From Owenia fusiformis (taxonomy: Eukaryota > Annelida > Polychaeta > Sabellida > Oweniidae), in contig CAIIXF020000009.1 of assembly GCA_903813345.2 (NCBI GenBank), positions 32,524,740 through 32,588,739 of the forward strand: a stretch of 64,000 nt of DNA. The letters run 5' to 3'. The translations under genes and the position numbers were made by a program. Below the pieces are notes generated by a model. It made no database searches. It saw only the letters and a list, made by a program, of their open reading frames with translations, and was not told the origin of the DNA. Positions 5,183 to 62,524 of the stretch are shown piece after piece (positions within the stretch are counted from its first letter, which is position 1; each line of letters starts with the position of its first letter).

Positions 5183-5738
5183 ATATTCTATATGATCCAT
5201 TGTCAATATAATTCATTATCCATGCATTTCATTGTTTTCACAATCTAATGATTTCACAATCTGTTGTCTTTATAATTCATTATCTATATAATGCATTATC
5301 CTATAATTCATTATCTATAGAATTCATTATCTTATTTATTCATTATCTATCTAATTCATCATTTATAAAATTCATTGTCTTATAATTCATTATCTATATA
5401 ATGCATTGCCTTATAATTCATTATCTATATAATTCATTGTCTTATAATTCATTATCTATATAATTCATTGCCTTATAATTCATTATCTATATAATTCATT
5501 GCCTTATAATTCATTATCTATATAATTCATTGCCTTATAATTCATTATCTATATAATTCATTGTCTTATAATTCATTATCTATATAATTCATTGCCTTAT
5601 AATTCATTATCTATATAATTCATTGCCTTATAATTCATTATCTATATAATTCATTGTCTTATAATTCATTATCTATATAATTCATTGCCTTATAATTCAT
5701 TATCTATATAATTCATTGTCTTATAATTCATTATCTAT
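5183..5738 (+). repeat. 31-bp tandem array
   Basis: The unit TTATAATTCATTATCTATAT plus AATTCATTGCC is clean from about 5379 to 5738 (about 11 copies), with degenerate copies before that. Confidence 0.9.
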
Positions 5739-6129
5739 TCATTTAATTATTTTTGAGTGCAGCTAGTTATCTCAGACAATGAATTGTGGCTAACCGCACT
5801 CAGATCTGAGGAATTACACATCATTTGTTGCAAACAGAGATTGGCTTGCAAGATGTTTTTGTTTAGTGAGATATTGAAATTGTTTAGATAGCAGTTTGGA
5901 AACACTGGATCATTCTTCATCATTAACAGATAATTCTACAAACTTACAACAGCAATGTGGAAAATATCTTTGCTATATTTATGATGTGTTTGTCTATGTC
6001 TAGGTTTATATGGTTTATGTTTTTGTGCAAAAGACTAATAAGTCTATTTGAAGCAGATAGTTTTAACAATAAATAGCATTTGAATAGAATAGAATTCTGG
6101 AACTTTCAAACAATTATATGTTAATTTGA

Positions 6130-6292
6130 CAAGGCATTAACATGCAAAATTTCTCCATATACCATTTGTTACAGATGCCAAATGCCAACCACCCAACACC
6201 AGCCACCGACCATTGAATACCAAACACTGTCCACAATAAAGGTGGAGTCTTGGAGACAATGACAATATGTCACCACTTCTGTGATAACATAA
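6130..6292. mobile_element. Family-A MITE next to the family-B element
   Basis: CAAGGCATTAACATGCAAAA to CACTTCTGTGATAACATAAA; its TGTCACC start is mutated. Confidence 0.7.
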
Positions 6293-6317
6293 ACACTACA
6301 AGAACACAAATGTGTAC

Positions 6318-7803
6318 AAAATGTCCCCACCAAGTGGTGATCCCGTGAAATGGTTATCCTGAAAATGAGTAGACAAGACTTTACCAACACAATTTGAGGA
6401 CGGAAAATCCAAAGTGGCCATCTTAAAATTTACCCAGAATGCCCAAAATTTAGTCAGTTCTAGATTTTCATACTAAGAACCACCCCTGAAAATTTGAAAT
6501 TGATCCGTCACACAGTTAACCAGAAAACATGTAAACAAGACTTTACAGACAAGATTTCAGGATGGAAAATCCAAAATGGCTGCCTTGACATTTACCCAGA
6601 ATGTCAAAAAACTAATCTGTTTGTAGATTTTCATACTAAGAATCATCCCTGAAAATATGAAATTGATCTACCAAACGGTTCACCTGAAAACGGGTAGACA
6701 AGACTTTACAGACAAGATTTTAGGACAGAAAATCCAAAATGGCTGCCTTAACATTTACGCAGAATGCAAAAAAAGTAATCAGATGTAGATTTTCATACAA
6801 AGAATCATCCCTGAAAATTTGAAATTGATCTATCAAACCGTTCTCCTAAAAACGCGTAGACAAGACTTTACAGGCAAGATTTTAAGACGGAAAATCCAAA
6901 ATGGCTGCCTTGACATTTACCCAGAATGCAAAAAAACTAATCAGTCCTAGATTTTCATACTAAGAATCATTCCTGAAAATTTGAAATTGATCTACGAAAC
7001 GGTTCACCTGAAAACGAGTAGACAAGACTTTACAGACAAGATTTTAGGACGGAAAATCCAAAATGGCTGCCTTGACATTTACCCAGAATGCCAAAAAACT
7101 AATGAGATCTAGATTTTTATACTAAGAATCATCCCTGAAAATTTGAAATTGATCCACCAAACGGTTCACCTGAAAACGCGCAGACAAGACTTCACAGACA
7201 AGATTTTAGGACCGAAAAATCCAAAATGGCCGACAATAAAAAAGTCCTTATGAGTTTTTGCTGATTTCTTTTTACAAAATTATCACATATAACTACTGTT
7301 AACAATAAAGTAGGCTTTTACAGCAAAGTACATCTGAAATTATTTATAAAGCTACTAAATAGTTAAAGTATGAAAACTCAAAAACACCATTCAATATGAT
7401 ACAAAGTATTATCGCGCGCTAACTTTTCTTAAGACATTCAAAATGGCTGACATGACTGAGCTAGCAGGTCCAAAACCTAATCAGATCTAGAATGAAGTTA
7501 GTTGAACAAGATGTTAAAGTTTTAAAAGCAACTGTGAAGCAGTTTTTCTTAAAGTTTGCAGACAAGGATTTTAGCATTTGACTTCAAAATGGCCGACAGG
7601 AAGTAGGTATCGAGTTAATTTTTTTTCATCCACATCTGTATGCACTCATAAGTTATCCCTGAAAATTTGAAGGTGATATCTGTAGCGGTTTTGGAGAAAA
7701 CTGCCGGACGTACGGACAGACAGACGGACAGACAGACGGACAGACGGACAGACGGACGCGCCTAGGCCGACAATATGGCCCCACACTATGTGGTGGGGAC
7801 ATA
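6318..7803. mobile_element. Family-B element with ATGTCCCCACC ends and six 162-bp internal repeats
   Basis: The ends are ATGTCCCCACC and GGTGGGGACATA. Inside, a unit starting GTAGACAAGACTTTACAGAC recurs at 6369, 6531, 6694, 6856, 7018 and 7180, each with CAAAATGGCTGCC and CCTGAAAATTTGAAATTGA. The 3' part ends in a GACGGACAGAC run (7710-7757) and GGCCGACAATATGGCCCCAC. No coding capacity. Confidence 0.8.
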
Positions 7804-54337: not shown

Positions 54338-57300
54338 ATGGCGACTGCATTATCGGCCAAACCTGTTGGTAAGTAAATGGTCACCATCAGTGCAGTTGCT
54401 GAAAATATAATTGTTAAAATGTTTTCTGAATATTTTACGAAAGGTGTTTAACCCCACACACACATACATACATGGTACAGACACATACATTTTTAAAAGC
54501 AAAAACAAACCAAAATTGCTAACTTCCCATCTCTATATTTTCTAGTGACATCTATCATGTACGTGCAAGATTGAAATGAAACATAATTTAATTCAGGCTA
54601 TTATTTGATTTCAGGCCAGATAATACCAATCTCCAGGAAATCAGAGGATGGGCAGAAAATAATAGATATTGTGACGAGAACTTTCTGGAATTGCGGAATA
54701 GAATGTGAATTCTTGAAGATTGACCGAATTACCAATGAAACCCTACAGCATGGTAAGTGTTTGTAGACCAACTTGCAGCTGTTGGTACATGGTTTTTATC
54801 TCCCAAGTTATGAATGATTGTACATTCAGGAATTTAGCCTTAGGTTTGAGCGGTTTGAGCGAAACTCCCAACCAAAAATTCTTTCAAAATATTGCAGTTT
54901 TTGGCTCACACAGTGAGCCTATGGGATCGACCAGGCGTCCGTCCGTCCGTTGGTCCGTCCATTGGTCCGTCCGTTGGTCCGTCCGTCCGTCAACATTGGC
55001 CACACAAATTAAAACTGCTATTCGGATTGAGTCGTATATACAGTCATTTTATGCAAATCCATAATGCCTATTTGACCTATCATCGCAATTTCCCAAGTTC
55101 ACCCGGTTTCCGAGAAATCGCTGATTTTGACGTCAAAAAGTCAAATTTTCTGTAAATACTAGACACTTTGTTGAAGTAGAACTTTCAAATAACTTGTAGT
55201 AGTTGCTGTATATGCAACTTATGTCCTCTGAAGATTTCAAAGCTCTTGGAATTATTGTTTTTGGTGTTTACTCTATAAAATTTGACAAAAAGAGGGTTAT
55301 GTATAAAGTCAATGGCAGGTTTTGTGATTGACAAGTTTCTCAAAGTTTGCCTTATACTTGATCATTTCTTGCAATGAATTACATCATAACTAGATTTAAG
55401 CATTCCCTACATATTGCTCAATATATGTCAGCATCAAATTTTTACCGTTTTTTGAGATATTTGACGTCAAAAAACAGTAAAAATAAGTTATTTTTCAATT
55501 TGACCAATTTTTTTTTGAAAATCATCTACAAGTTACCAGGAGTTCAAATCTTACATTAGTTTTAGGATTTCACCTTTACTTGACCTTCAGTGACCTTTGA
55601 AATGTCAAAAAAGTTGATTTTTGGATGTAAATTTTGGTCAGCTTAATCATACTGAGCTCTAAATAAGTAAAATTTTCAAGGTCGAAGGTCACAACTGTGC
55701 TGTCTATAAGTTTCTGAAAGTTCGAGACTACAAATCCAAATCAATATTTTTGTTTGAAAGTCAGGATATACATTCCTCTGAAGGTTCCAAACTGTGTGAG
55801 CACAGGACCGTGGGTCCTATTTTTCACCATTTTGAGTACTTCAGATGATCTTGGGCCAAAATTGTCAAATTTGAACACTCCTAGAAATCTGTGCAGTATC
55901 ATTTGAATGCGAAAAAAACTGTGGAGCCCACATTCAGAATATATCTTAATTTATATCAATATCAGTGGAAGTATACAGGGTGATCCAAAAACGCAATCCT
56001 CCAATTTTGAAATTACGTTCTCAACATGGTTAAATTCTATGCAAGTCAAACACTATTTTGCAATACCAAATGAGTTTGTCTTACACTGTTTCTTTTTCAA
56101 TTAATGGTAATATTAGAAAACCTAGATCACAATTATATTTTTATTTTAGAATTCCGACAAATCAAAGATCGCTTGACTAAATCTGGCTTGAAATACACAG
56201 AGCTCCGGGAAACATTTGCGTTTACATACAGAGGTAACCGTAGCATGTTAAAGGCAATTTGTGATACTGGCCTGAGGGTGGAGGATAACCCACGGAGGAG
56301 CATACTTGGGGATGCAACTAAGGGGGTGCATTTATGGATGAGTGCTGATCTATGCCTGGCTAAGATCAGTGCTCCTTTATGCAAGATCATCATGTACAAG
56401 GTATGCAAGTTCATGTAAAGGTAGAGTGCAAAATCATCATGTACAAGGTATGCAAGTTCATGTAAAGGTAGAGTGCAAGATCATCATGTACAAGGTATGC
56501 AAGTTCATGTAAAGATAGAGTGCAAAATCATCATGTACAAGGTATGCAAGTTCATGTAAAGGTGCAAGATCATCATGTACAAGGTATGCAAGTTCATGTA
56601 AAGGTAGAGTGCAAGATCATCATGTACAAGGTATGCAAATTCATGTAAAGGTAGAGTGCAGAATCATCATGTACAAGGTATGCAAGTTCATGTAAAGGTA
56701 GAGTGCAGAATCATCATGTACAAGGTATGCAAGTTCATGTAAAGGTGCAAGATTATCATGTACAAGGTATGCAAGTTCATGTAAAGGTAGAGTGCAAGAT
56801 CATCTTGTGCAGACTACAGTGTGTAAAGTGTAGTGCCAGACCATAATGTATAAGTTATAGTGAAACAACAACATGTCCAAGGTATAGTGTGAGATAATCA
56901 TGAGCAGGATATAGTTTTCAAAGTATAGTGCAAGATCATAATGTATAAGCCATATTGCACGCCAGTCATCATGTATTAGGTATCGTGCAAAATCATCAAA
57001 TTTATTTTAAAGGGCAAGATGTTTATTTACAAGGTACTGTATATGTCATGCTTAAGTACAGAAAAGTTGTCAGTTCTTTGTCTTACCCTGAAGGTAGTTT
57101 TTCCCCTACGTGAAATGTTGGCCCATTCTGTATAAGGCTACATAAAAGACATGTACATCAACAATTTAGTAGAAATTAAATATTAGGTAATAAAAGTTAA
57201 TAATGTTTTTTGTAGATCATAAAAGGCAGAATAAAGCAAGTAGCTCCTAACTTTGATACATCTGGGCCAGACAGTGCCCTCCAGCCCCCGACTCCAGGCT

Positions 57301-60300
57301 TCAACTGTCATTCATCAGCCAATATTCCAATGACAGACACCTCTCTGGACAGACTCATGACCAATTCTCAGGTAAATAACATACCTTTTTATTAAGGTAG
57401 TTCCAAATAGAATTATCAATCTAGAATGCATTTTTGGAATGAATACAATTAAAGTGCTCCGGGGTAAAGATTTGCAAACCAAAATTTTCATTTTTTTAAG
57501 ACACCTCGATATTTGTTTAAGGAATAGAAAAAACATGTTTCTTCAGGGTATGCTTTGATCAAAATGGATCTTCATTCACTTGCATGTAGATCTCTATAAA
57601 TGATGTCATAATAACCTTTACCACCAATTGATGAAATGAACAAAGAATTAATTAGGATTCGAACATGACTGTATTCACGCCTTCTATAAACTGTAAACAA
57701 AGTCAATGCTTCAGCTGGGTTATATTCGAGATCAATAACCCAGTTAATACGTGTAATGTGTGACGTCATAACGATGGGTCGTAGTAATGGCGGACCATGA
57801 TGAATATTCGAAACAATTTGGTGAGTTTTCATGTTCGAATCGTAATATAGACCTCAGATCAGGGGTAATATCGTCGAATACACCCCTTGGGGCTAGGCAC
57901 AAAAGCTTTCGAACCCATCACTCCCTTCTGTCGTTCGTGGTACAGAAAACGTTTGTGCCTAGCCCTGCGGGTTGTATTCGACGATATAACCCCTGCTTTT
58001 CGGTCTATATTTCTTAAATAAAGAACACTGTATTATTCTTTATTGGTAATTTCAAAGTATAAGTGTATGTGCCCAAACATATAATATATATTATTAGGAT
58101 GGGGACGTACATGCATGAATGCTTTTAAATCCAAAAAGAATGATACAAGGTTCTTTATTGCAGTTCAAATATTCCATCACTCTTTTATAAAAAGCGACAT
58201 TGTCCAGTTCTTTATGAAACCATAATGCAACGTAAAATAATGTTTCTTTTCAGATGACCATATACCTTGAATAAATGCACTGAAATTCTTCAATTTTTTT
58301 TCAATTTCAATTCAATTTATTTATTTCATAATTCTTATATAATATACACTATAAAAACAAGCCGCTAGACACCCTAGTGGGTATATGTTGCGGAAATTTA
58401 ACAGAAATTTTTAGAATGACATCTAGACTACATATAAAAGAAAGCACTTATATTATGTTACATGTAGGTATATAAAAATGGTATTAACAATTAATTTAAT
58501 GAATTCTAAGTGTGATTCAAGGCAGAGACACACTTGGCATGTTTGAATTAATTTTAAAAGTGGTTATAGATTGATATGTTAACCTTCTCCAAATGTTCTC
58601 CCCTTTGTTTTGTTTTCTCTTGGCACTTTAACAAAATGAAATTGTTGTCAAGGAGATTATCATGTTAGTGCTGATTGCCTCAAAACCAATTAAATGTATT
58701 AAAACTATGTCATATTAAAACTATGTCATATTTTAAGTGAACATATCCTTTTCAACAATATTGGAGTGTGTCTCATTTTGTCAGAGTATTGTGACATTTA
58801 ATGTGACATTAAGAGCATTGTGACATTCTAAACTCTACAGTTGTATTATTTTAGTTGTAGCCATAATATTATTTTAATAAACAAGTTGAAATTAAAATTG
58901 AATTGATCAGTATCTGTAGATATACATTTACATTGTTGTAGTTATTAATTGACTCCTCTATTGAATATGTGAGCCATCTCTATAATTCTAGCTGTATCTA
59001 TATATAATTTTACATAAGCTGTATCTGTGTACTTTTAGCTGTATCTATATGACATGGATGGCCATGGTAAATGCTCTAAGAGACCTAGACAAGTTCTACC
59101 ATATGCAGTATTATTCTAGCTGTATCTATATATTATTTTACATAAGCTGTATCTATGTACTTTTAGCTGTATCTATATGACATGGATGGCCATGGTAAAT
59201 GCTCTAAGAGACCTAGACAAGTTCTACCATATGCAGTATTATTCTAGCTGTATCTATATATTATTTTACATAAGCTGTATCTGTGTACTTTTAGCTGTAT
59301 CTATATGACATGGATGGCCATGGTAAATGCTCTAAGAGACCAAGACAAGTTCTACCATATGCAGTATTATCGTTCAAGGTAAATATTCAAATGTAAAGAT
59401 AGAAACGAATTAAGAGCAAGCGTCAAAAAGATTGTCACAATTTTACAAAATGTTTCGGTGTCACCATTTCATGTCATGTCAATTTCAAACAGTCCTGCCT
59501 TTATTACAGGTTAAACCACACTTAGGTAGCAACACAATAGAATGAACTGTATTTTATTTTCAAGAATGTCCAGCTATAACAAAGAGGAGTGGATTTTTTT
59601 CTATTGTTTTTATTAAAGAATGTACACTTGTAAAAAAAAATGATACCCAATATATCTCTTAGCCGAAGTGATGGAAGAACAGTACCTTCATTGCCTCTTT
59701 GTAATCTACCAAGACACTTTTCTGTTGTAGGTAAATGTTCTCAAAGTGAGAGAGATTTTCCCAACCTTGGAACCCCTAGTCATGGAACACAAAGAGGAGG
59801 AAAAGGTAATACTGTTAAATAAATCAGGTACAGTGAAACCTGTATACAGGATACACTATCAGCTATCAACACTGTCATTTTGATATGGAGACATGGAAAC
59901 ATTTCACCCCAACAGCTTTATATGAACTTTGACTTGCTGTTTAGTATTCACATTGCAAGGTTTTTGCTAATTTTATTCCTGACTTTAATCAATTTTGCAT
60001 AATTTGTATTTTATACACATTTCATGAAAAATTTAAATATGAGCATCTCAGGATTGACTCCATGCCTGAAATTTGTTATAATTAGTGTCTACTTTAATCT
60101 TCAATAATATCTTATAGATAAAATAGGTAAAATTACAATGGAAAACTAGATTTATTCTTACAAAATACATATTTCCATCCACTTAAGGAACGAATGTGTT
60201 TTATTTTTTAGCCCGTTAACCTCACAGATTTGATGAAAACAGCACATTCAGTGTACAATGGGTACATCTTCAATAAAGGCAACCACCTGGCCCATGTTAC

Positions 60301-62524
60301 TATGCTATGTGGCTCTAAACTCTTTTTCCCTCTGTAAGTATCATCAGAACGATTTACATCATTATTTTAAAGTCTTGTTGAAACTTCTCGATTTAAGAGC
60401 CTTGTTAAGAAACTCATTGACTAAATTAGAAGTTTTATATATTAACATCACCTATCAGTAATCGTTCAAATATGTTTACTTTGTGAGTACTTCATATTGA
60501 GGTGCTTTTATCCAAATATTTTGTAGGGATATTTCTACTCACAATTATTGAACTTAAAGAACATAATATGTACATTATAATTTATTTATTGAGATACTCA
60601 ATATACAATACCCACCCTTAAAGTCTTAACATGCATACATTTACATTGTTGTTTGGTGTTAGGCCTGATGGTACAGACAGGTAAAACAATGATGAGCCAC
60701 ATGATGTTAATGTTACCCTTGTTAACTGTTTGAAATAATTCCTACTTGGAGGGCAGTTGCTCTCATATGCTTCTCTGCTGGTACACATTAAAACATACAG
60801 TAAAACCTGTGTGGAACACCTTTGGTACCTCTAAAAAGTGGGAAGTGTTCCACTCATTTACATTAAGTCATTTGGTCTTGGGAAGTGTTCCACTTACAGA
60901 GGTGTTCCACATAACAGATTTCACTGTATATCATAATGAGCAATCGTTTAGTACATAACTTTTGTGTATCAGCAAGAACATGAATTAGATAAGTTTCTTT
61001 TATAAGTAAGAATTGATGTTATAATGTTGATATTACATTTGAATGCATAGCCATCTCACTGAACAACCATACTATATTCTGTAGATAATCACATTTATTT
61101 TAGAATGACAACTTAGATATACTGTTAGTCAGATTTAGCTCAAATTTCATAGGCTCAAATTTCTCTTACTTAAAAACTTGAAATTTCACATTTTTGGCAG
61201 TGTCAGTTTTTTATCTTAAAAGTGCCTCATATCAAAATTGTCTCACATTTGAATAAGTTGTTTTTACTTGAGCATCGCTTAACAGATTTGCCCAATATTT
61301 GAAATGATTGTGATTCTTTATGTAGGATATATCTCTTTTCAAAATAATTGATGCATCCAATTGACATGCAAATCAGATAAAAAAGCTATTTGAAAGTATT
61401 TACTAACTTATTTCATCCATTTTACCTAATTGTAATTTGACTTGTTATAGTGAGAAGAAACTTGCTGTTGACAGTAAAACTCCATTGGAACAATTCAAAC
61501 TGTTGCTAGGAGACAAAGCGAAACAACTCAAGTTGCTATGGAAACAAGATGGTAATAGCAGTATTCCTCTTCTTCATAGAGTTTCTCCAAATAAAATTCA
61601 AATAAATCGACCTTTGTGAATAAATCATAAAAAATGTTCTAAAGCAAAGGGTTATAATTTATGATCTGGGAGTCGTGTATCATACCCTTTGTACCCATAG
61701 ATACATCCTTGTATTAGGAGACAGGAGAATTGACAGTGCCAGTGTTTGTTCTGATGAGGCAGCTGTGTCATATAATGATAATAACACTCCCTTTATGAAT
61801 CATCACGCATGCTGAATCAATAATATACCATTCAACATTACTTAATGCGGCATTAACCTAACAAAGCAGAGGAAGCATCGGTTGTCATAGCAATTATTGT
61901 ATTTACGTTATGTACAATATTATCACTGACAATGCACAAAGGGCAACATTTGAAAAATAGAATTGCATGTGTGAATCTACCCTCCAGAGTTATTGAGTTA
62001 GAAGATATGAATTGTAGTATAAGTTGATGTATTGAGTGTTTGATTATAGGCTCAAAGAAAGATGCTCAACTGGTGTTTCTCAGGGCTGATGAAGACAAGT
62101 ACAAGAAAAGAATAAAACAATTTGCCACCCTCCTGGATCAAAGCAAATCTGTGAGTAAAATACATGAGCAATTTTATGTCACCATAGATTATTGTCATAG
62201 TCTGTAACTTTTTATATGGATGGTGTGCGGCGGTTGGTTTGGTTGGTTCAAGGTGTCAAATGGTCACTGTGTTGTGCTGTGTCTGTGTCTCCATTTGATA
62301 TCCCATAATTTCTTATTAATTGACATCTGTTCATCAATTTATGCCTTCATTATTTTGCCCACAATATCAAATGACTTATGGGAACATCTTTGTTAAGAGT
62401 TGTTGAAAGCTGATACAATTTTTGTATTTTCTCTCGTATTATATTTAGGTGGGGGTAGCCAAAGTCCACAGAGAGGAATTTTTGCTGTGTTTGCTGTCTG
62501 GTAAAACCCTACAAGAGGAATTCG
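54338..62524 (+). CDS. TASOR: TASOR-like protein, DUF3715 (pseudo-PARP) domain; first ten exons, 3' end outside window
   Basis: Exons are 54338-54368, 54615-54752, 56150-56400, 57216-57371, 59295-59378, 59731-59805, 60212-60333, 61451-61551, 62050-62150 and 62449-62524. All junctions are in phase with GT-AG introns, giving 378 residues so far. Recognised by DUF3715 hallmarks: LGDATKGVHLWMSADL (109-124), IIKGRIKQV (141-149), a PPTPGFNCH stretch, and KRPRQVLPYAVLSF (206-219), where the domain normally ends. Residues 246-378 (DLMKTAHSVYNGYIFNKG, SKLFFP, VHREEFLLCLLSGKTL) may be the SPOC-like domain that follows in TASOR. In vertebrates TASOR is the scaffold of the nuclear HUSH complex, and its PARP-like fold is catalytically dead. 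TASOR2 and TEX15 share the domain, so orthology within the group is open. The start ATG (AAGATGG) is chosen because only this frame stays open across exon 2. Confidence 0.8.
54826..55830. mobile_element. Repeat cluster in TASOR-like intron 2 (CCGTCCGT run, TGACCTT-rich unit)
   Basis: Starts with a fragment of the GCCCGTAGCCAGG family (about 54826-54900). It then has GGCTCACACAGTGAGCCTAT, a CCGTCCGTTGGTCCGT run (54940-54990), and a long AT-rich body. Near its end (55560-55715) it carries the reverse complement of the AGGTCA-rich repeat at 51.6-52.1 kb, and it closes with ACTGTGTGAGCACAGGACC. The CCGTCCGT run produces artefactual proline/serine/valine ORFs. Confidence 0.6.
56380..56766 (+). repeat. 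Nine tandem copies of the exon 3 splice donor of the TASOR-like gene
   Basis: The unit (GCAAGATCATCATGTACAAG, then GTATGCAAGTTCATGTAAAG, then GTAGAGT) is 47 bp, or 42 bp where AGAGT is missing. The base before each GT falls at 56400, 56447, 56494, 56541, 56583, 56630, 56677, 56724 and 56766. Only the first is used in the open frame: any later donor would add VCKFM and a TAA stop. Decayed copies continue to about 57000. Confidence 0.9.
57844..58011. mobile_element. Foldback MITE in TASOR-like intron 4
   Basis: About 60-bp inverted arms run AATATAGACC-...-GGGGTAATATCGTCGAATAC-...-GGGCTAGGCACAAA and back, ending CGGTCTATATT. The spacer between the arms is about 50 bp. No coding capacity. Confidence 0.8.
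58283..58395 (-). mobile_element. 3' tail of a truncated LINE or SINE in TASOR-like intron 4
   Basis: Reversed, it ends AAATAAATAAATTGAATTGA and then A-rich sequence, a common non-LTR tail. GCGGCTTG and CCCACTAGGGTGTCTAG precede it. Confidence 0.4.
58988..59378 (+). repeat. Three tandem copies of the acceptor and front of exon 5, only the third complete
   Basis: The 128-bp unit includes a CTTTTAG acceptor followed by the exon sequence for LYLYDMDGHGKCSKRPRQVL. Exon copies start at 59039, 59167 and 59295. Copies 1 and 2 run into TTATTCTAG, a stop with no donor, while copy 3 ends TCGTTCAAG followed by GTAAAT and keeps the frame. Copies 1 and 2 differ from copy 3 within the exon by one synonymous base (CCT versus CCA). 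They are pseudo-exons with intact acceptors. Confidence 0.9.
60797..60929. mobile_element. MITE with CAGTRAAACCTGT termini, copy in TASOR-like intron 7
   Basis: Inverted ends CAGTAAAACCTGT and ACAGATTTCACTGTA enclose GTGTTCCACT-rich sequence. The same family lies at 8750-8923, and a solo terminus (TACAGTGAAACCTGTATA) at about 59827-59844. Confidence 0.75.

What the first reader, a model, noticed from the sequence alone, without database searches (positions are those of the whole stretch)
56380..56766. A 5' splice site repeated nine times in tandem
The last 20 bases of TASOR-like exon 3 and the first 27 of its intron form a 47-bp unit repeated nine times, each with an intact AAG|GTATGC donor. 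Only the first keeps the frame; all others add VCKFM then a stop. The copies are nearly identical, so the array is young or kept homogeneous. It could tune splicing (donor competition, nonsense-mediated decay switch) or give a 140-residue truncated form ending inside DUF3715. Presence and frame consequences are seen; the function is inferred.
Basis: partly seen in the sequence, partly recalled or inferred. Interest (0 to 1): 0.8.

Follow-up and report, generated by a model that had tools for sequence, protein, structure and literature searches.

The report
Minisatellite copying a splice donor site
In an animal gene related to the transposon-silencing gene TASOR, the spot where an exon meets its intron has been copied nine times in a row by ordinary repeat growth, much like a known repeat in the human gene ABCA7, so the find is real but is probably a tolerated accident rather than a built switch.

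Summary
Nine head-to-tail copies of the exon-3/intron-3 junction of a TASOR-like (DUF3715) gene lie at 56380-56808, each with AAG|GTATGC. Seven copies are 47 bp, two 42 bp. Only donor 56400 leaves an open frame; the other eight give VCKFM-stop.

Human TASOR aligns without a local gap across the junction made by donor 56400, so the conserved coding exon most likely seeded the array. New here: the 47-bp unit is a 27-bp unit plus a degraded copy of it. The next ~250 bp of intron are older, decayed 27-bp copies. Exon 5 of the same gene has its acceptor in a 3 x 128-bp array, a mirror image. A LATS-like kinase gene elsewhere has a minisatellite resembling its own donor.

About 8% of the window is minisatellite. 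Splice junctions were not enriched for arrays, and donor uniformity needs no selection. Human ABCA7 has a published VNTR that repeats a donor.

Best reading: a junction-born minisatellite, nearly neutral, spliced mainly at the first donor with some leak into stop-containing transcripts. A dosage switch is possible but nothing found here supports it. No RNA, population or related-species data could be reached.

The parts
54338..54368 (+). exon 1, coding part (assumed start ATG)
   Evidence: conceptual gene model, GT donor, frame carries on; start codon not proven
54615..54752 (+). exon 2
   Evidence: AG/GT borders and open frame
56150..56400 (+). exon 3; its last 21 bases are the exonic part of array copy 1
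   Evidence: open frame ending CKIIMYK; aligned to human TASOR 6tl1
56380..56808 (+). young junction minisatellite: nine donors AAG|GTATGC, units of 47 bp (7) and 42 bp (2), four-unit higher-order repeat
   Evidence: TRF and exact motif positions
56809..57060 (+). decayed older copies of the junction, 27-bp period
   Evidence: local alignment to a 27-mer tandem, score 248 against 90 +/- 11 (max 127) in 500 Markov resamples; four neighbouring control stretches stayed at or below the maximum of their resamples
56401..57215 (+). intron 3, 815 bp, of which about 660 bp (56401-57060) are junction copies
   Evidence: arithmetic
57216..57371 (+). exon 4, 156 bp, starts and ends in phase 0, so skipping it would keep the frame
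58981..59370 (+). 128-bp x 3 array carrying the 3' end of intron 4 and most of exon 5: acceptors at 59039, 59167, 59295, of which only the last leaves the frame open
   Evidence: TRF 98% matches; frames
59295..59378 (+). exon 5 (last array copy plus the unique end with its donor)
   Evidence: aligns with human TASOR
59731..62524 (+). exons 6-10 of the gene model (59731-59805, 60212-60333, 61451-61551, 62050-62150, 62449-62524)
   Evidence: AG/GT borders, continuous frame

Best explanation
It is a minisatellite born at an old splice junction. A stretch of about 27 bp, the last ~21 coding bases of exon 3 plus the start of the intron, was duplicated in tandem in the past. Its distal copies decayed. 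A dimer (27 bp + a degraded 20-bp copy) became the 47-bp unit, and a four-unit block was then duplicated, giving nine near-identical copies next to the exon (sequence history shown by alignment; slippage or unequal exchange inferred). Selection on the protein keeps copy 1 as the coding exon end. The extra donors are tolerated because splicing mostly uses the first donor, next to the real exon, while a minority of transcripts use donors 2-9, gain the TAA and are presumably degraded or give a 145-residue fragment (inferred, by analogy with ABCA7). The array is nearly neutral and should vary in copy number between individuals (inferred).
For: Array, 42/47-bp units and four-unit block. Exon end encodes CKIIMYK, aligned to VVIFK in human TASOR with no gap in the residues directly either side of the junction, so the unit started as coding sequence. 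Two other DUF3715 genes look to end the homologous exon at the same codon (MAVFK|GT, VMVYK|GT), with no visible copy of this array beside them (read by eye). Half-units are homologous (score 27; 0 of 5000 shuffles reach it) and the downstream intron is a decayed array. Minisatellites are frequent: 8.3% of the window, 6.7% of 206 kb from 60 other loci. Junctions are not favoured targets: 1 of 84 inferred junctions has two or more near-copies nearby against 27 of 300 control positions and 5.2% of 2000 window positions. The second junction array in the gene shows the same outcome: only the copy at the exon keeps the frame. Human ABCA7 precedent: 25-bp VNTR starting at the exon 18 donor, retention of one unit 2 +/- 1% of transcripts (PMC5954066, passages).
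Against: No RNA was available, so use of the first donor is inferred. Nine identical donors need not favour the first: SR proteins can push choice to the intron-proximal site (PMC5585400, passages). Two of 19 junctions in one gene being arrays is a little striking, though P(2 or more) = 0.48 at the window's array coverage. The control positions are clumped (five per locus within 100 bp) and the junctions there were inferred from profile-match ends, so the apparent depletion (Fisher p 0.015) is soft.
Confidence: 0.75

Rival explanations
1. Regulated or autoregulated decay switch: cells choose between donor 56400 (productive) and donors 56447-56766 (stop at VCKFM, decay) to set the level of the TASOR-like protein.
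For: All nine donors are intact and equally strong (score 8.1 by a recalled human-like matrix, sixth of this gene's ten donors), and the eight extra ones all carry the stop. The gene family silences transposons (PMC10578480, abstract), where dosage could matter (inference).
Against: Donor intactness is expected from so few mutations (0.33). Older decayed copies lost donors freely (by eye about 4 of 7 keep GT). No fold singles out a donor: mean unpaired 0.35-0.48 against 0.42 overall. Similar arrays hit an acceptor and another gene.
Confidence: 0.08
2. Length effect as in ABCA7: array length changes splicing of the next exon, here skipping of exon 4, which is in frame.
For: ABCA7 exon 19 skipping rises with VNTR length and is in frame (PMC5954066, passages). 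Exon 4 here is 156 bp, phase 0-0, and its removal leaves the frame open.
Against: No RNA. The present array is short (429 bp) compared with the long ABCA7 alleles. Skipping would remove 52 residues of the DUF3715 core.
Confidence: 0.12
3. In-frame micro-exons: the 21-base coding part of each copy (CKIIMYK) is sometimes spliced in as its own small exon and lengthens the protein.
For: GTAGAG|TGCAAG...AAG|GTATGC frames a 21-base open segment in the full-length copies (sequence).
Against: Purine-rich sequence before the AG, no pyrimidine tract; insertion would fall in the conserved pseudo-PARP core.
Confidence: 0.02
4. Assembly artefact.
For: Tandem repeats are a known source of error (general knowledge).
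Against: Copies differ by substitutions and two deletions, the older decayed part continues the array, and 429 bp is easily spanned by long reads; how this assembly was made is unknown.
Confidence: 0.03

Closest known systems
ABCA7 intron 18 VNTR (human), PMC5954066 (passages seen)
   Same: Minisatellite that starts at an exon's donor and repeats a donor in its units; use of a second-unit donor gives a frameshift and premature stop; the canonical first donor is used.
   Different: ABCA7 units are 25 bp, described as starting with the GT, and reach 12-427 copies with measured effects. Here the unit also carries 21 coding bases, there are nine copies, the intron shows older decayed copies, and no expression is known.
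Internal tandem repeats at exon-intron boundaries in human segmental duplications, PMC2812944 (passages seen)
   Same: Minisatellites that cross an exon-intron boundary and add splice sites; 27 such intron modifications after manual inspection.
   Different: Those are paralogue differences with transcript support, often creating new introns. Here an old intron is kept and its donor multiplied.
Intron gain by tandem duplication across a boundary, potato RdRp, PMC4974935 (abstract and outline seen)
   Same: Tandem duplication of sequence across an intron-exon boundary duplicates splice signals.
   Different: One duplication made a new intron; here there is no sign of a new intron.
Human introns from tandem arrays (Zhuo and co-workers 2007; recalled, seen only as a cited title phrase in the papers listed)
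   Same: Tandem copies carrying splice sites.
   Different: Not read; details not compared.

Membership tests
Donor-embedding VNTR (ABCA7 kind) | Tandem units each holding a donor-like sequence, first unit at the real exon end | tested here: met
   Nine AAG|GTATGC, first at 56400
Donor-embedding VNTR (ABCA7 kind) | Copy number varies between individuals | not testable with these tools
   One assembly only
Donor-embedding VNTR (ABCA7 kind) | Measured use of a later unit's donor, or length effect on splicing | not testable with these tools
   No RNA
Regulated unproductive splicing (decay switch) | Alternative site brings in a premature stop | tested here: met
   8 of 9 donors
Regulated unproductive splicing (decay switch) | Site conserved between species, or regulated use | not testable with these tools
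   No animal comparison genomes or RNA were available
Intron gain by tandem duplication (AG|GT model) | Array itself is removed as a newly created intron | tested here: inconclusive
   No sign of a new intron: two other DUF3715 genes seem to have an intron at the same codon (by eye, no transcript evidence), so the intron looks older than the array
TASOR-like gene | DUF3715 domain above curated cut-off | tested here: met
   PF12509 E 3.9e-20, 72.8 bits against cut-off 28.5; 6tl1 human TASOR E 1.6e-18, the only PDB sequence at E up to 10
TASOR-like gene | Assembly of a HUSH complex | not testable with these tools
   -

The most novel reading that the evidence does not exclude
The array is a copy-number dial for a transposon-silencing protein: each added copy adds one more equally strong, stop-bearing donor, so allele length sets the fraction of productive TASOR-like mRNA, and the array and the mirror-image acceptor array of exon 5 together give heritable, fast-changing variation in genome-defence strength.
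Probability: 0.07. Interest if true: 0.7.

Novelty: new member of a known kind. Interest (0 to 1): 0.33.

Why it matters
It is a clean natural test of how a cell picks one donor out of nine identical ones when eight are harmful, and it shows a coding exon end drawn into a minisatellite. If copy number proved to set productive splicing, it would link repeat variation to transposon silencing. As it stands it is mainly a good example of junction-born minisatellites in a repeat-rich genome.

Tried and rejected
RNA structure as a donor selector: array energy -85.5 against -81.1 +/- 9.7 for 100 Markov resamples, and a perfect array is no better than tandem arrays of resampled units; rejected. Dispersed repeat as the source: the whole-genome search with the array gave five matches, two on the window's own stretch (one of them the decayed part, 77%) and three on C6 at 67-69%. 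The C6 stretch is a 21-bp minisatellite sharing a short GTTCATGTAAAGG...TAGAG-like word. I judge this chance or at most a short shared word; that search skips common words, so it is not proof of absence. Recursive splicing and micro-exons: no pyrimidine tract; set aside by reading.

Other copies of the gene: PF12509 in the whole genome listed two other places but did not list the window's own gene, so its count is a lower bound.

Junction survey: 60 loci (30 myosin-head, 30 kinase); 3 of 120 match edges had an array within 30 bp. Of these, one is the LATS-like donor case, one starts 24 bp beyond the profile-match edge and does not contain the donor (L015), and one is a marginal two-copy call (L028). 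Junctions in the survey are inferred from profile-match ends and a recalled matrix, not annotated: 36 of 120 edges gave no acceptable site and were dropped.

Literature: eight answered searches, the most specific, returned no paper, while the ABCA7 paper came. I found no report of this locus, but no search named it, since the species is not known.

Full report
OBSERVATION. TRF places a 47-bp, 9.3-copy array at 56380-56808 with a 183-bp higher-order period. Nine exact AAG|GTATGC donors occur. Seven units are 47 bp; units 4 and 8 are 42 bp. Besides the nine main donors, the stretch 56380-56808 holds nine CAT|GTAAAG, six AAG|GTAGAG and two AAG|GTGCAA weaker sites by a recalled human-like matrix. 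AAG|GTATGC scores 8.1, sixth of the ten donors of this gene, which range from 5.0 to 10.4.

GENE. Ten exons with AG/GT borders give a continuous 378-residue frame. It matches PF12509 DUF3715 (E 3.9e-20, residues 67-213) and human TASOR 6tl1 (E 1.6e-18). Around the exon 3/4 junction the alignment reads CKIIMYK|IIKGRIK against DVVIFK|IMKGKIK with no gap in these residues; gaps occur further out on both sides. That supports donor 56400 as the coding junction and shows that the exonic part of the repeat is conserved protein-coding sequence. Two other DUF3715 places were found, on C1 and C9; the search did not list the window's own gene, so this is a lower bound. Read by eye, both look as if their exon ends at the same codon (MAVFK|GTACTA; VMVYK|GTAGGT). 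For the second the frame stays open past the GT, so this is an inference without transcript evidence.

FRAMES. Donor 56400: open. Donors 56447 to 56766: all eight stop after VCKFM, 145 residues. Four of the eight add a multiple of three bases and still stop. Skipping exon 4 (156 bp) would leave the frame open.

HISTORY. The second half of the unit aligns to the first (score 27; 0 of 5000 shuffles reach it, maximum 24). The intron from 56809 to 57060 aligns to a tandem 27-mer with score 248 against 90 +/- 11 (maximum 127) in 500 Markov resamples. Four control stretches near by scored 38, 49.5, 65 and 55 against resample maxima 69, 57, 84.5 and 94. So about 660 of the 815 intron bases derive from the junction. 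By eye about four of seven decayed copies still have GT in place. In the young array five of 47 columns vary and none is in the nine-base donor; the chance of that is 0.33. Donor uniformity therefore needs no selection.

MIRROR CASE. In the same gene, 58981-59370 is a 128-bp x 3 array at 98%. Each copy holds an acceptor and most of exon 5 (59039, 59167, 59295); only the last leaves the frame open, the other two stop after 218 residues. In a kinase gene on C11, whose sequence I recognise as LATS-like from recall, the donor AAG|GTAAGTAATGAT is followed by a 23-bp, 35-copy array (TRF). The 12-mer GTAAGTAATGAT occurs 11 times, the donor included. Most of those array copies are poor donors (TTT or ATT before GT), and others have lost the GT.

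BACKGROUND RATE. Arrays of period 10 or more cover 8.3% of the window (7.4% of 1-54000). They overlap 2 of 19 junctions of this gene; P(2 or more) is 0.48 at that coverage. In 60 other loci (206,262 bases) arrays cover 6.7% overall, 7.8% of flanks and 0.01% of domain matches; 3 of 120 match edges have an array within 30 bp. Of 84 inferred junctions there, 1 had two or more near-copies within about 1.3 kb, against 27 of 300 control positions and 5.2% of 2000 random window positions; for this gene it is 2 of 19. Fisher p for 1/84 against 27/300 is 0.015, but the controls are clumped, so I say only that junctions are not enriched.

MECHANISM. Shown: origin from the exon junction, staged growth, frame effects, and the high minisatellite background. 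Inferred: slippage or unequal exchange, predominant use of the first donor, minor leak, near-neutrality. The ABCA7 VNTR is a measured precedent. Its first two bases are the exon 18 donor, alleles have about 12 to 427 units, one-unit retention was 2 +/- 1% and did not depend on length, while skipping of the next, in-frame exon rose with length (PMC5954066, passages). Against easy first-donor use: SR proteins can favour the intron-proximal of two donors (PMC5585400, passages). RNA folding gave no selector.

NOVELTY. The kind is known: ABCA7, and tandem repeats at exon-intron boundaries (PMC2812944, passages). Particular here are the coding exon end inside the unit, the layered age, and the paired donor and acceptor arrays in one gene. 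The gene family silences transposons (PMC10578480, abstract), which makes the bold reading, a copy-number dial, worth a test but gives it no evidence.

Noticed in passing
window 58981-59370: 128-bp x 3 array holding the acceptor and most of exon 5 of the same gene; only the last acceptor leaves the frame open.
   Followed up: yes
L055 (G000:C11:19329697-19330146, minus strand, and flank): LATS-like kinase exon (name by recall) whose donor AAG|GTAAGTAATGAT resembles the unit of the 23-bp, 35-copy array right behind it.
   Followed up: partly
G000:C9:37986009-37994334 (minus strand): Twelve profile matches to about the same 50-65 positions of the myosin head in a row: tandem copies of one exon, perhaps alternative exons of a myosin heavy chain gene.
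   Followed up: no
L069:589-9999: Open frame of 3137 codons, still open at the end, probably the large last part of the same gene; holds a 39-bp x 54 coding repeat (5366-7460), an 81-bp x 8.8 coding repeat and a double-stranded-RNA-binding motif (PF00035, E 3.3e-6).
   Followed up: partly
L006:4001-4691: 21-bp x 33 minisatellite on C6 sharing a short word with the 47-bp unit; its upstream end lies close to what looks like the acceptor of a minus-strand exon.
   Followed up: partly
L015:1749-2147: 33-bp x 12 minisatellite starting 24 bp beyond the myosin profile-match edge, close to the exon's donor, which it does not include.
   Followed up: partly
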